Shown here in pieces: positions 1 to 35,871 of a stretch of 36,193 nt of DNA. The DNA lies in NCBI GenBank assembly GCA_017467895.1, contig JAFUKB010000028.1, forward strand, positions 1 to 36,193. Direction: 5' to 3'. The number at the start of each line of letters is the position of its first letter. The first letter of the stretch is position 1. The DNA comes from Clostridia bacterium. GTDB taxonomy: Bacteria > Bacillota > Clostridia > Christensenellales > UBA1242. The position numbers were made by a program, and so were the translations under genes. The notes under the pieces are model-generated. The model made no database searches. It saw only the letters and a program-made list of their open reading frames with translations, and was not told the DNA's origin.

Positions 1-876
1 ACAATAACAACTCCAGATGGAGTAACAGCAACCCCAAGCCCAGCCAGTGCAGACCTAGAAACTGCAGGAGCCGAAGGCGACGAAGCAACATTTACAATAA
101 CACTCTCACTTACAACAACCTCAAGCAACATAACCATGCCAGATATTAACAACTTAAGCGTTGCTATGGAGTTTAATAAGTTTGTAGAAGAAGCATTGCC
201 ACTGTATGTAGAAAACAACAAACTGTTTGTAAACATGGGCACTGACCCAGACACGGGCAACCCAATCAGATGGTACGCTATAGCAAAAGATAACGCAACA
301 CTTAAAGAAACTGAGTTTACAAATATATCTCAAGCAACTGCAGGCACCTATGTGTTTATCTCAGAATATATCTTAGAAAACAGCGAAGGTGGGGACAGTA
401 TTGCTTTTAATTATAACATGACTGCAGAAAACAACTGGGGAGCAAACTACGGTGGTTCAACAATCCAAACCTACATTAATGGCACAGGCACAGGCTCAAT
501 GGACGCCCGTTATAACTTCTCATCATCAGATGTGTGGGCAAAGATTGAGCCAAAAGACTGCGAGAGTGAAACAGTGCAAGATTATGCCATAGACTCAGAT
601 GTAACAATCCCAGCAACTAACGACCAAACATTGTGGCTACTAAGTTACAATGAATACAACTCATGGTTTGGCGATGGCGATTCTTCCGGCGAAGGGTACT
701 TACTCAACTCAACCTCTAGTACCGGCAACTGGTGGTTGCGCTCGGCTTACGGAGTCTACTCCGACGTTAACCTCTCTGGTGTGAAGTATGTCTACGGCCA
801 TGGCGCTTTGGACAACAGCGATGCCGGCAGCGACTCCCATGGCGCCCGCCCTGCTTTCCAAATCACCATTGCGTAG
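1..876 (+). CDS. DUF6273-type surface protein, 3' part (5' end outside window); candidate DGR target
   Basis: The reading frame is open from base 1, so the gene begins upstream of the window; the ATG at 136 is internal and has no ribosome binding site. The visible 291 codons start with a Thr/Ser/Ala-rich linker, followed by a DUF6273-like domain: an IRWYAIAKD strand, an NWGANYGGSTIQTYING segment, a TLWLLSYNEYNSWF segment, and a C-terminal block with WWLRSA and GARPAF. That last block is the hallmark of C-type-lectin-like folds such as those of diversity-generating-retroelement targets. The linker suggests an extracellular protein with a larger N-terminal part. Codon use changes sharply in the last 130 bases, from mixed A/T endings to almost only C/T endings with higher GC. 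The gene ends shortly before a GC hairpin and a terminator. Domain assignment is by motif and is fairly secure; the DGR role is inferred. The ligand is unknown. Confidence 0.7.
   Translation, partial: TITTPDGVTATPSPASADLETAGAEGDEATFTITLSLTTTSSNITMPDINNLSVAMEFNKFVEEALPLYVENNKLFVNMGTDPDTGNPIRWYAIAKDNATLKETEFTNISQATAGTYVFISEYILENSEGGDSIAFNYNMTAENNWGANYGGSTIQTYINGTGTGSMDARYNFSSSDVWAKIEPKDCESETVQDYAIDSDVTIPATNDQTLWLLSYNEYNSWFGDGDSSGEGYLLNSTSSTGNWWLRSAYGVYSDVNLSGVKYVYGHGALDNSDAGSDSHGARPAFQITIA
745..876 (+). other. Candidate DGR variable region (VR) at the gene's 3' end
   Basis: Between WWLRS and GARPAF, 31 of 35 codons (745-849) end in C or T and many are NNC (tac, gtc, tcc, gac, ctc, ggc, agc). 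This is the pattern left when AAC/AAT codons of a template repeat are scrambled by adenine mutagenesis. The flanking codons for WWLRS and GARPAF look constant. The position at the extreme 3' end of a lectin-like gene fits known variable regions. No template repeat or reverse transcriptase is visible in this window, so if real it is a remote target. Confidence 0.5.
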
Positions 877-942
877 CAGGGTAAATTTACCCCAAAACGC
901 ACTGAAGCAAATTGTGTGACGAGCACAGTTGCAAACACTCTT

Positions 943-964
943 GCACCCGCCATTGGCGGTGTGC
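943..964 (+). other. GC-rich hairpin downstream of the candidate variable region
   Basis: GCACCCGCC pairs with GGCGGTGTGC (nine pairs, one bulged T) around an ATT loop. No U-tract follows, so it is not an ordinary terminator; a separate terminator lies 40 bases further on. DGR variable regions are often followed by a short GC hairpin or cruciform that promotes retrohoming. This one sits 67 bases past the stop codon, farther than in phage BPP-1. Confidence 0.45.
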
Positions 965-1002
965 GAAATAAAAGCATAAATGACATTTGTATAAAATAAT
1001 GG

Positions 1003-1147: not shown

Positions 1148-2287
1148 ATGGACGAAACAAAGCCAACAAAAAAATACACAAGGCTGAAAAGTTCTTACAG
1201 CATTTCAAGTGTGGCTGAGGTTGATTTAAGGTTAAAAAGTTTTAGAGAACAAATTAAATCAGATGATTTTAGCCCTATTAAAACAATGTTTTATGACTTG
1301 TCGCAACACAGCCAAATTATGCTTCTTGTGTTAAACGATGTGCACATTGGTTCGCCGGGGTGCAACATTGACAAGGTTATTAGATATTTAAAAGAAGTTA
1401 AAAACATTCCAAACTGTTACATAATTTTAAATGGCGATTTAATGAACAATGCCAACAATTTGGGCAAGTCAAGCCCGCTTGAAAATGCGCTTCCGCCAAT
1501 GAATGAACAAAAAATTATTCACACACTTCTTGCTGACCCATTAATTAGAGAAAAAATTATTTGTTCAACCAGTGGCAATCACGAAAGTGGTGCAAGGGCG
1601 CGTGACAGTGGCTTAGATTCCTTGGTTACGCCAATGGCTTCGCTTGGCATTTTGGACAAATATGCAAGATATATGGCTCAAGTTGTTTTGCGCATTAAAT
1701 GCCCTTACACCGCTTCGGGTTACACGGATTTTAAAATTTTGGTTCGTCATGGCAGTGGTATGGGTGGCAAAGCAGGAAAGATAATAGAAGAGATGTTTAA
1801 TCTTTGTCGCAGTTTTGGAAATTATGATATGGTTATTCAAGGTCATACACACAAAAACCTTTATGCAACCGACGACCAAGTTGTTCAGGGCGAAAAATAT
1901 TCTTGCATTAAAAAGAGTGTTACTCCTATTAATATTCCCGCGTTGGAAGAAGCAAGTCAATATGCAATGGAGGCGGCATATCCGCCACCAAACACCGACA
2001 ACAGCATAATTTGTGTGCGCGCGGTTAGAAATTATGACGCATTAGACAGTGCTCTTAACGAGGGGTATGAGGTTTTGCCTTACAAATTTAACATTGACAC
2101 CATAAGTTTAGATAGACCAGAACTTGTGCATTTTGCCTCACAAAGCATTGAACCACCAAGAGTTATTTCTAGGCAGGAGTTAGAGGTAATTGCCGAGCGT
2201 GTTGCAAGGCAAGTTACCTTAAAGACAAAAAGACCTAAAGCCCCAAAAACAACGCCAGAACCAAATGATGATGGCAGGGAGGAGTAG
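1148..2287 (+). CDS. Calcineurin-like metallophosphoesterase
   Basis: A 379-residue protein of the binuclear metallophosphoesterase superfamily. The full metal-ligand set is visible in order: D64 and H66 in LNDVHIG, D97 in LNGDL, N144-H145-E146 in SGNHE, H201 in RHGSG, and GHTH at 232-235. These residues normally bind two divalent metals and hydrolyse phosphoester bonds, so the protein should be catalytic. The substrate (nucleotide, nucleic acid or phosphoprotein) cannot be told. There is no signal peptide, so it is likely cytoplasmic. The C-terminus (from about 345) is a basic, Pro/Lys-rich tail. Its last codons (Gly-Arg-Glu-Glu) contain GGGAGGAG, the ribosome binding site of the next gene three bases downstream, so the two are translationally coupled. 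The neighbour is a degenerate paralogue, which suggests a heteromeric enzyme. Confidence 0.82.
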   Translation: MDETKPTKKYTRLKSSYSISSVAEVDLRLKSFREQIKSDDFSPIKTMFYDLSQHSQIMLLVLNDVHIGSPGCNIDKVIRYLKEVKNIPNCYIILNGDLMNNANNLGKSSPLENALPPMNEQKIIHTLLADPLIREKIICSTSGNHESGARARDSGLDSLVTPMASLGILDKYARYMAQVVLRIKCPYTASGYTDFKILVRHGSGMGGKAGKIIEEMFNLCRSFGNYDMVIQGHTHKNLYATDDQVVQGEKYSCIKKSVTPINIPALEEASQYAMEAAYPPPNTDNSIICVRAVRNYDALDSALNEGYEVLPYKFNIDTISLDRPELVHFASQSIEPPRVISRQELEVIAERVARQVTLKTKRPKAPKTTPEPNDDGREE

Positions 2288-33096: not shown

Positions 33097-35871
33097 ATGG
33101 CACTTGATTTAACCGAATTGGTTATTTGCTCTAGAGTTGAAAATAGTTTTCCAAAATCTCATAGATTTCGCAGGGCTCTTCGCACGCAAGACAGGGTTTA
33201 TCTTGCCTCTTTTGATGACATAAGAAAACTTCAACCTGAACAACGGCAAAAAGAAACAACCGATTTCGCCATTATTAATTATATTGATAATTTTTATTTT
33301 GGTAGTATAAATGCAGGGGCTTATTATTTGCGCACGCCAGAAGACGGAACTTTTAGCAACTATATTGGCTCTGTTCGAACAAATGGAACATATTTTGAAC
33401 CTAGAGTAACGGTAGACACTATGGGGGTTAGTCCTAGGCTTAAGTTAGATTTATCAAAATTTTTAAGTTTGCGGGCAAATTTGCCAAATGGCGGGGCGCA
33501 AATAGAGAAAAATTCTCGCGGGGGGGGGACATCTTATGTGCTTCAACTTGGAGAATATCCAAAAAATAAAGCAAGCGATTCCACTTGTGTTGAGTTAGAG
33601 CGTTTGTTTAATGGTGGAAGTTTGCTCGAAGGGTTAGAGGCTACTGGGCGTTGGTTTACAACAAACGGCAAGGGAAGTGGCATTGAACCAGGCGATTTTG
33701 TTTCTCATCAAAACCCTGAGTTTGTTTATGGTGGCGAAAAATATATTAGAGTTAGAACTAAAATGACCCGAAGGATATCCGCTTCTGCACATGGTTCTAG
33801 CATAATGGACGGCGAAATAACATGGATTAAGGTTGAGCCTATATCTTTTGTTATAAAAAATTGGAAAGACTTGCCAAAAGAAATTAATCCAAAAGGCAAA
33901 GGCAGGGCAAAATTTTTAGAGTTAGAGGCAGAAGATATAATTTTGGCAGGAATCCCTTTTGCGTCTTCTGAACGAGCAAGGCATGGCGATCTTTGGCAAA
34001 ACTCACTTATTAGAACTTTTTTAAACAGTGAGCAATTTAGTCAAATGAACAAAAATGCAGAATATTCTGAATTTATTGCATGCGATTGGGATTTTAGAGA
34101 CAGTGGATTTTTATATCAGGCGTTTAATTTAGCACGCGAGCCTATTGAAGAATATACAATTCCTAAGCATGAAGAAGTAATTTGCGACTATGCTTTTGAG
34201 GGTTGCGTTGCATTAAAAACCTTAATTATACCATCGCATGTGCAGGGCATTGGTGAGGGGGCATTTAATGGCTGTTGCTTTAAGTTTGCATATTATGATA
34301 AAACTTCTGGCAACTTTATTTTATCGCATGATATGCCTCGAGATTTGAGCCAATGCGTTAATTTGGTTAGTTTAGATAAAATTAAAAAATCAATACTTGA
34401 TTTTAATTATAATTTATTATTAAATGTAGAAAATCTTGAAAAATTGCAAAAAATTAGTGATTTTTTGGTTAAAAATAAAACTATAGTTAATTCACAAACG
34501 GCAAATATGTTAATGGATAGTTTAAACATTGACCAATTTGTGGAGGAAAGCAACCTGCGCTTTTTTGCCAACGAACTAGGTTTTGCCATTGCCGAAGCAA
34601 AAAATTGTCATCCGGCATTGGAGTCTGATCTATATAAGTTTGCTGGTCTTATGGGTTGTTTTTCGACTAAAAAAGTTAAGGACAAACATGGAAAAGAAAC
34701 GCAAGTTATTTTAGCACAAAAAGCATGTTCACTGCTTGCGCAAATGTTAAAACAAAAAGTTATTACCTTGGGTGATATGGGGCCGTTATTAAAAGATGTT
34801 CCGCTTGCATATAAGCCCAGCCAAGACTTTTTAAAATTTATTGGCCTTTTAGGTGACAACAAAAAATTTGTAAATCTTGATATGCTTTTAACTCTTGAAA
34901 AGGGTTATCCCGGAATTTTTATAAAAACCATGACCGATTTTGAGAGAGTTAAGGGTTTTAGAGTTACAATAGGTGCGTATGGAACGCCAGTTACTGTGCC
35001 GTGGGCAGATGCAATTATCAAAGCATACCAAGCCAATTATTATATTGGTGTTACACCAGAAAATCAGGATATTGCCAATTTGTTTGCAGGCAAAGGTTTG
35101 GAGCAATCTATTTTTGAAACGGCAATCAGGCTTAGGGCAGAAGCAAAGCAAGGGCGTGTCCCTTCTCATATTTTGGGAAAGCCTTTAAGAGAATGTTCTA
35201 TATTAGAAAGCATTGAACAAATTAGAGCGCACACGCAATCACAATTATTAGAAGCGCAAGCGCTTATTGATGACCTTTATGCCAAAAAATTTACTTTTGA
35301 AATGTTAGATAAATATGACCCTAAAAATGCTATTTTGGGGCTATACTGCTCTTGTTGTGGAAGTATTTCTAGCATATATTATGGTGCTCAAATAGCAGAG
35401 TCAAGCATTGTTGCAAAAGATGTTCAAAATCTTGTTGTAAGAAATACGCAGGGAGAGATTATTGCAAAGGGAACTATTTATGTTAATAAAAAACTTGGTT
35501 ATGCTGTGATTAACGACTTTGAACTAAACGACGACTATAAAGACCACGAGGAGGGCATTGGCTTTTATAGTGTTCCAGAAGATAGCGAAGAAGAGCAAAC
35601 TAGAGATATGATTTTTGATGCGTTTATGCGAGGCATTCATGCTTTTGTTGAAGAATATGATTTGCAACACCCTGAATGTCCAATAAAATTTGTAAATGTT
35701 GGATTGGGGCATAACAGGCTACAGTTACAATGCTCAAGGTTTGCAGAGGCTACTGAAAACTTGCTTGTTCCTTCTGAATATAATTTTTGTGATGCCGAAG
35801 CAACCCAGCGCGTATTATATGATAGAAAAAAGCATATGAGGCAAAACGCCAAAACTGGAGGTAGGGAATAA
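33097..35871 (+). CDS. 924-residue protein: DUF6273-like region, BspA-type leucine-rich repeat, unrecognised C-terminal region
   Basis: There is no signal peptide, so it is likely intracellular. Residues ~75-118 (YYLRT...VRTNG...GVSPRLKLD) look like the end of a DUF6273-type lectin-like fold. Residues ~147-345 look like the start of one (LQLGEYP, ITWIKVEP, LWQNSLIRTFLNSEQF), as if permuted or duplicated. One BspA-like LRR lies at 350-392 (AFEGCVALKTLIIP). A long helical region follows. The end (~745-900) has CSCC (751-754), alternating strands (VVRNTQGEIIAKGTIYVN) and FVNVGLGHN, which loosely recalls acetyltransferase folds. Gly142-144 are encoded by nine consecutive G, so gain or loss of one G would truncate the protein. 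The stop overlaps the next start (TAATG) and GGAGG lies within the last codons. The function is unknown. Confidence 0.75.
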   Translation: MALDLTELVICSRVENSFPKSHRFRRALRTQDRVYLASFDDIRKLQPEQRQKETTDFAIINYIDNFYFGSINAGAYYLRTPEDGTFSNYIGSVRTNGTYFEPRVTVDTMGVSPRLKLDLSKFLSLRANLPNGGAQIEKNSRGGGTSYVLQLGEYPKNKASDSTCVELERLFNGGSLLEGLEATGRWFTTNGKGSGIEPGDFVSHQNPEFVYGGEKYIRVRTKMTRRISASAHGSSIMDGEITWIKVEPISFVIKNWKDLPKEINPKGKGRAKFLELEAEDIILAGIPFASSERARHGDLWQNSLIRTFLNSEQFSQMNKNAEYSEFIACDWDFRDSGFLYQAFNLAREPIEEYTIPKHEEVICDYAFEGCVALKTLIIPSHVQGIGEGAFNGCCFKFAYYDKTSGNFILSHDMPRDLSQCVNLVSLDKIKKSILDFNYNLLLNVENLEKLQKISDFLVKNKTIVNSQTANMLMDSLNIDQFVEESNLRFFANELGFAIAEAKNCHPALESDLYKFAGLMGCFSTKKVKDKHGKETQVILAQKACSLLAQMLKQKVITLGDMGPLLKDVPLAYKPSQDFLKFIGLLGDNKKFVNLDMLLTLEKGYPGIFIKTMTDFERVKGFRVTIGAYGTPVTVPWADAIIKAYQANYYIGVTPENQDIANLFAGKGLEQSIFETAIRLRAEAKQGRVPSHILGKPLRECSILESIEQIRAHTQSQLLEAQALIDDLYAKKFTFEMLDKYDPKNAILGLYCSCCGSISSIYYGAQIAESSIVAKDVQNLVVRNTQGEIIAKGTIYVNKKLGYAVINDFELNDDYKDHEEGIGFYSVPEDSEEEQTRDMIFDAFMRGIHAFVEEYDLQHPECPIKFVNVGLGHNRLQLQCSRFAEATENLLVPSEYNFCDAEATQRVLYDRKKHMRQNAKTGGRE
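33520..33528 (+). repeat. G9 homopolymer inside the 924-residue gene
   Basis: Nine G in a row encode Gly142-144. With ten G the frame stops after about 13 more codons (TAA), and with eight G it stops after about 24 codons (TAG). Such a run is out of place in AT-rich DNA where GGG is rare, and is the classical substrate of slipped-strand mispairing. Confidence 0.8.

What the first reader, a model, noticed from the sequence alone, without database searches (positions are those of the whole stretch)
700..970. Probable target of a diversity-generating retroelement (DGR) whose template and reverse transcriptase lie elsewhere
The lectin-like C-terminus sits between conserved WWLRS and GARPAF, and 31 of its 35 intervening codons end in C or T, many NNC, in a gene otherwise using mixed A/T endings. 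This matches adenine-specific mutagenesis of AAC/AAT codons in a template. GC content rises exactly there and stays high past the stop codon. A DGR would make this a hypervariable binding protein in an anaerobic clostridium.
Basis: partly seen in the sequence, partly recalled or inferred. Interest (0 to 1): 0.75.

Follow-up and report, generated by a model that had tools for sequence, protein, structure and literature searches.

The report
Hypervariable lectin written by retroelement
The gene at the start of this contig encodes an exported lectin-like protein whose binding tip looks rewritten by a diversity-generating retroelement; the same small clostridial genome holds two such retroelements and about 29 related lectin genes, but the template that wrote this particular one was not found.

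Summary
The codon observation is real. The gene (1-876, 5' end cut by the contig) ends in a DUF6273 domain, predicted as a C-type-lectin fold. Its 32 codons between WWLRS and GARPAF are 28 NNY. The same draft genome (871 kb, 48 contigs, 90% complete) carries two diversity-generating retroelements on other contigs, each with reverse transcriptase, template repeat (TR) and proven variable repeat (VR), one with an Avd gene. TR-to-VR changes fall almost only on adenines (12-22 of 33 and 18-20 of 31 A sites, against 0-2 of 73-78 others). The genome has about 29 DUF6273 genes; a sister genome with RTs has about 26, three congeners without RTs have 0-1. Against its closest paralogue the window gene is 80% identical upstream but 31% in the VR, with the excess at codon positions 1 and 2. 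Window 786-823 aligns without gaps to TR2, with 9/17 A sites and 1/21 other sites changed, beyond all 500 shuffles. No cognate TR was found in the assembled genome by four searches; it may lie in the missing tenth, or be lost. So the gene is a DGR-type target; present activity and its exact template are unproven.

The parts
1..876 (+). 5'-truncated gene for a probably exported DUF6273 (C-type-lectin-fold) variable protein
   Evidence: open frame to stop at 874-876; PF19789 E 3.5e-8 at residues 115-289; AF2 model pLDDT 85, pTM 0.79, best fold matches an IgA peptidase (Z 15.3) and C-type lectins
730..744 (+). constant anchor WWLRS at the 5' edge of the variable repeat, shared with proven VRs and TRs
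   Evidence: sequence; same motif in TR1, TR2 and their VRs
745..840 (+). variable core (32 codons, 28 NNY), inferred VR
786..823 (+). segment matching TR2 with 9/17 A sites and 1/21 non-A sites changed
   Evidence: z 7.4 against codon shuffles
841..864 (+). conserved 3' edge (GGCGCCCGCCCTG then CTTTCCAAATC), candidate initiation-of-mutagenic-homing site; first 13 bases differ from TR2's GGCGCGCGCCCTG at one base
   Evidence: role inferred
879..892 (.). GGGTAAATTTACCC inverted repeat just after the stop; GGGTA in this place is shared with the two cassette VRs and the C5:43235 gene
   Evidence: 6 of 29 family genes, background 1.5%; motif chosen after looking
942..965 (.). GC-rich hairpin downstream (TGCACCCGCC...GGCGGTGTGC), similar stem 3' of a VR in SIG415
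   Evidence: z -2.4; hairpins are not enriched family-wide, so this may be only a terminator-like element

Best explanation
The gene is one of about 29 DUF6273 lectin-fold genes in a small clostridial genome that serve, or have served, as targets of diversity-generating retroelements. A DGR reverse transcriptase with Avd copies a template RNA, misreading its adenines. The cDNA then replaces the 3' end of a target gene between the conserved WWLRS stretch and the GARPAF/homing edge, so AAC/AAT template codons become NNC/NNT. Two such DGRs are shown in this genome by TR/VR pairs. That the window gene's VR (745-840) was written the same way, in trans, by a template related to TR2 is inferred from its codon pattern, its paralogue comparison and its partial TR2 match. 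Its own template is either in the unassembled tenth of the genome or has been lost, leaving the last written variant in place. The product is probably an exported or surface binding protein with a changeable binding face: full-length paralogues start with a charged, hydrophobic signal-anchor-like segment, but no signal predictor was run.
For: Two DGR-type RTs (GVPMGNQSSQ / YMDD) and an Avd (NF033474 7e-10, PF22296 7e-6) in the genome. TR1 and TR2 with VRs: A sites changed 15/33, 22/33, 12/33 (TR1) and 20/31, 18/31 (TR2), other sites 0-2 of 73-78, p 9e-6 to 2e-14. DUF6273 copy number follows DGR presence within the genus: about 28-29 and 26 with RTs; 1, 1, 0 without. TR-less VR families C and D vary at codon positions 1/2/3 in 18/19/4 and 14/12/4 of 38 codons. 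Window gene against nearest paralogue (C31): upstream differences 0.15/0.11/0.32 at positions 1/2/3, VR 0.47/0.53/0.41. TR2-compatible segment 786-823, score 20.4 against shuffle maximum 14.3, absent in the non-NNY relatives on C34 and C1. DUF6273 with the VR at its C-terminus is a published DGR target in Faecalibacterium prophages (PMC11792537; see also PMC10743442).
Against: No cognate TR by degenerate pattern with 3 mismatches, by TR-shaped pattern, by the downstream 13-mer found after five of the six TRs seen in the two genomes, or by an inferred template. The fit to TR2 covers only 38 of 96 variable bases. Third positions in the VR also differ from the closest paralogue (0.41), so the two were not recently written by one template. 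No within-species variation could be examined.
Confidence: 0.8

Rival explanations
1. Retired target (a sub-case of the best explanation, not exclusive with it): the VR was written by a DGR template that has since been lost or has drifted, and the gene is now a frozen lectin under ordinary evolution.
For: No cognate TR in the draft. Decay is visible nearby: C35 keeps a TR1-type VR (L030) next to an RT relic at C35:4808-4930 and no TR-marker 13-mer. Both genomes hold DUF6273 genes with mixed third positions and no template. T. denticola strains keep targets after losing RT and TR (PMC4891356).
Against: The NNY pattern (28/32), GC block and intact 3' edge are still sharp, unlike drifted relatives C34 and C1 (0.61 and 0.59 NNY). 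The assembly lacks about 10% of the genome, and eight-, five- and two-member VR families lack TRs too, so TRs may simply be missing.
Confidence: 0.4
2. Ordinary diversifying selection on a DUF6273 lectin that happens to use NNY-ending codons, without any retroelement writing.
For: NNY richness alone is reached by an unrelated gene; lectin binding loops can evolve fast.
Against: Adenine-specific TR/VR pairs in the same gene family and genome, codon-position pattern, TR2-compatible segment, family expansion only where DGR RTs occur.
Confidence: 0.12
3. Horizontal or recombinational import of a GC-rich 3' cassette from another bacterium.
For: GC steps up in the segment and past the stop.
Against: The TRs and VRs of this genome are themselves GC-rich islands of the same kind and are local, so a TR-derived segment explains the GC step; the flanks share paralogy with C31, C41 and C5 genes of the same genome.
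Confidence: 0.04

Closest known systems
Treponema denticola DGR with remote TvpA-type targets (PMC4891356)
   Same: One TR/RT locus and several C-type-lectin-fold targets scattered in a cellular genome; orphaned targets in strains without RT
   Different: Up to 7 targets and one TR per isolate there; here about 29 family genes, two TRs found, at least three further TR-less VR families, DUF6273 instead of FGE-sulfatase annotation
Thiohalocapsa PB-PSB1 multi-DGR repertoire (PMC10907252)
   Same: Several DGR loci, degenerate loci and candidate remote targets possibly served in trans
   Different: 15 targets in a 7.95 Mb multicellular bacterium, proposed sensors of conflict systems; here a genome of about 1 Mb with exported-looking lectins
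DUF6273 DGR targets of Faecalibacterium prophages (PMC11792537, PMC10743442)
   Same: Same domain, VR at its C-terminus, C-type-lectin-like fold
   Different: Phage proteins there; here chromosomal paralogues on contigs with housekeeping genes
Bordetella phage BPP-1 DGR and Mtd (PMC3240598)
   Same: Adenine mutagenesis, 3' homing edge; Mtd is among the weaker fold matches of the model (1yu1, Z 4.6)
   Different: Phage, cis cassette; BPP-1's required hairpin right after the VR has no family-wide counterpart detected here

Membership tests
Diversity-generating retroelement (genome level) | DGR-type reverse transcriptase | tested here: met
   C44:1695-2762 and C30:371-1447 ORFs, RVT_1 E 2.7e-20 and 7e-19, GNQSSQ and YMDD motifs; that these motifs mark DGR RTs is from my own knowledge; no RT tree was built
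Diversity-generating retroelement (genome level) | TR/VR pairs differing almost only at template adenines | tested here: met
   TR1 with three VRs, TR2 with two
Diversity-generating retroelement (genome level) | Avd-type accessory gene | tested here: met
   C30:1852-2340, NF033474 7.4e-10, PF22296 6.9e-6, both below the curated cut-off scores; none seen on the short contig C44
DGR target (window gene) | cognate template repeat in the genome | tested here: inconclusive
   none in the 871 kb assembled, but the genome is only about 90% complete; the gene is therefore called a DGR-type target, not a proven TR/VR pair
DGR target (window gene) | NNY-coded hypervariable segment near the 3' end, bounded by conserved edges | tested here: met
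   28/32 NNY; VR identity 31% against 80% upstream
DGR target (window gene) | variation only at template-A positions among strains or reads | not testable with these tools
   one genome per species held; no reads
DGR target (window gene) | C-type-lectin or similar scaffold carrying the VR | tested here: met
   DUF6273; VIA-align 9qa6 Z 15.3, Lcl C-terminal domain 7.9, C-type lectins 5-6.5, Mtd 4.6; plain Foldseek found nothing at E <= 0.001
DUF6273 (PF19789) | profile score over the curated cut-off | tested here: met
   33.9 bits against 23.5

The most novel reading that the evidence does not exclude
A clostridial cell with a genome of about 1 Mb spends some 29 genes on exported lectins written in trans by a few shared reverse transcriptases from several templates, some physically detached from any RT (as the orphan template between glnS and rplQ in the sister genome), giving a combinatorial, continually renewed surface-binding repertoire.
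Probability: 0.4. Interest if true: 0.75.

Novelty: new member of a known kind. Interest (0 to 1): 0.55.

Why it matters
The examples with the most targets in the papers read here are T. denticola (7) and Thiohalocapsa (15). About 29 candidate targets of one domain family in a reduced clostridial genome, with template families, a detached template and decaying cassettes, would make it possible to study how templates and targets are exchanged, retired and served in trans, and what a small anaerobe gains from a changing set of binding proteins.

Tried and rejected
Window VR written directly by TR1 or TR2: rejected over the full length; only 786-823 fits TR2. A post-VR DNA hairpin as a family-wide homing element: no enrichment against other genes. 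Relatives as a source of the cognate TR: none in 297 family genomes by degenerate pattern, none in the genome loci fetched by then, and 0 viral contigs with TGGTGGTTGCGCTCGGCT. The TR-tail pattern in viral contigs gave 22 matches that were not followed. Contig breaks as evidence of VR hypervariability: 17 of 29 family genes lie within 1.5 kb of a contig end (p 4e-7; the 17 were counted by hand), but most breaks fall on the 5' side of the domain, so repeated N-terminal parts are the simpler cause. Plain Foldseek against the PDB found no match.

Full report
What was checked. The gene at 1-876 is open from the contig start to TAG at 874-876. Its last 175 residues are a DUF6273 domain (PF19789, E 3.5e-8). 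The rest of the gene has 125 of 243, and window genes average 54%. GC is 0.56 in the VR against 0.43 upstream and stays raised to about 960. The pattern is real, but a His/Asp-rich gene in the window reaches a similar NNY density, so it is not proof by itself.

The machinery exists in the same genome. The window is contig C20 of an 871-kb, 48-contig draft, 90% complete. RVT_1 finds two RTs, on C44 and C30. Both read GVPMGNQSSQ and YMDD, as DGR RTs do (my knowledge of the family; no RT tree was built). On C44 a DUF6273 gene ends in a VR; an A-rich near-copy outside the gene (TR1, 1227-1339) follows, then the RT on the other strand. On C30 the order is VR, RT, TR2 (1674-1789, minus strand) and an Avd gene (NF033474 7.4e-10). 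TR1 explains three VRs (C44, C21, C35) and TR2 two (C30, C22). Changes hit 15, 22 and 12 of 33 A sites and 20 and 18 of 31, against 0, 2, 2 of 73 and 0, 1 of 78 other sites. These are bona fide DGRs, and three of the five targets lie on contigs other than the RT and TR (C21, C35, C22).

A large target family. The genome has 30 DUF6273 matches, two of which are the TRs; with the C31 gene this makes about 29 genes. Besides the TR1 and TR2 groups, the VRs fall into further families: C (5 genes), D (2) and E (8 with the GVRAAF edge). In C, variable columns at codon positions 1/2/3 are 18/19/4 of 38; in D 14/12/4; in six aligned members of E 22/21/12. That is the trace of AAY templates, yet no TR for them was seen in the assembly. 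Within the genus, G002 (whose contig C15 matches SVIS01000015, MAG SIG415, in length and TR) has about 26 DUF6273 genes and three RTs. G001, G003 and G004 have 1, 1 and 0 and no RT. Full-length paralogues begin MKNKFRLWLNIVTICLCVCAIAIGVYSA..., a signal-anchor-like start; no signal predictor was run.

The window gene itself. Its nearest paralogue, on C31, is 80% identical upstream but 31% in the VR. Differences at codon positions 1/2/3 are 0.15/0.11/0.32 upstream and 0.47/0.53/0.41 in the VR. The excess is at positions 1 and 2 while position 3 stays near background. Bases 786-823 align to TR2 without gaps with 9 of 17 A sites and 1 of 21 other sites changed. The score is 20.4 against at most 14.3 in 500 codon shuffles. 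Several family E VRs reach similar scores; the non-NNY relatives on C34 and C1 do not. The 3' edge GGCGCCCGCCCTG differs from TR2's by one base, and the stop is followed by GGGTA as in both cassette VRs (motif chosen after inspection).

The missing template. A pattern allowing A or the VR base at the variable positions found only the VR itself. A TR-shaped pattern found only TR1 and TR2. The 13-mer GGGTAAAGGAATC follows five of the six TRs seen in the two genomes (not the one of G002's third, divergent DGR) and occurs, with up to one mismatch, only at TR1 and TR2 here and at three TRs in G002. An inferred template found the VR, then TR2 and TR1, then only short stray matches. So the cognate TR is absent from what is assembled. 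A tenth of the genome is missing, and the fifteen genes of families C, D and E share the same lack. TR loss also occurs: C35 carries a TR1-type VR beside an RT relic without the TR marker.

Structure. The AF2 model (35 sequences, pLDDT 85, pTM 0.79) matches the Thomasclavelia IgA peptidase 9qa6 (Z 15.3 over 182 residues). Weaker matches are the Lcl C-terminal domain (7.9), C-type lectins (5-6.5) and Mtd (4.6). Plain Foldseek gave nothing significant, so the lectin-fold reading rests on VIA-align and on the published DUF6273 models (PMC10743442).

Mechanism and known systems. Shown: adenine-specific TR/VR pairs, RT, Avd and a shared target family. Inferred: that this VR was written in trans by a TR2-like template, and that the product is an exported binding protein. 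The kind is known: remote and orphaned targets in T. denticola (PMC4891356), several DGRs with 15 targets in Thiohalocapsa (PMC10907252), DUF6273 targets in Faecalibacterium prophages (PMC11792537, PMC10743442). The size of the family in a genome this small and a template detached from any RT in G002 are the notable parts.

Noticed in passing
L216:3150-3350 (G002:C10): Orphan template repeat between glnS and rplQ with no RT or Avd beside it, with the usual TR tail and 13-mer; three VRs in the same genome match it with 13-15 non-A differences.
   Followed up: partly
L217:1318-6192 (G002:C20): A third DGR whose TR, in the Avd-RT gap, matches a VR near the N-terminus of a 944-aa protein (0 non-A and 6 A differences in 80 bases).
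   Followed up: partly
window 33097-35871: 924-aa gene homologous (38% over 412 aa, E 1e-80) to that DGR-targeted 944-aa protein; the aligned region (from about 33313) has mixed third positions, so no sign of DGR writing here.
   Followed up: partly
L012:1330-1400, L011:1610-1690, L063:1405-1475, L218:2180-2250, L216:3285-3352: TR RNAs share a possible 3' stem: ACCCTA/TAGGGT in three templates and ACCCC(AAA)/(TTT)GGGGT in two, a compensatory change, running into GGGTAAAGGAATC (by eye).
   Followed up: no
L220:2320-2930 (G000:C35): Decayed DGR cassette: TR1-type VR gene followed by DGR-like noncoding remains and a short RT relic.
   Followed up: partly
G000 contig ends, e.g. C20:343, C44:257, C41:391, C7:7698: 17 of 29 DUF6273 genes lie within 1.5 kb of a contig end (expected about 5), so such target families are likely under-assembled in metagenomes.
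   Followed up: partly
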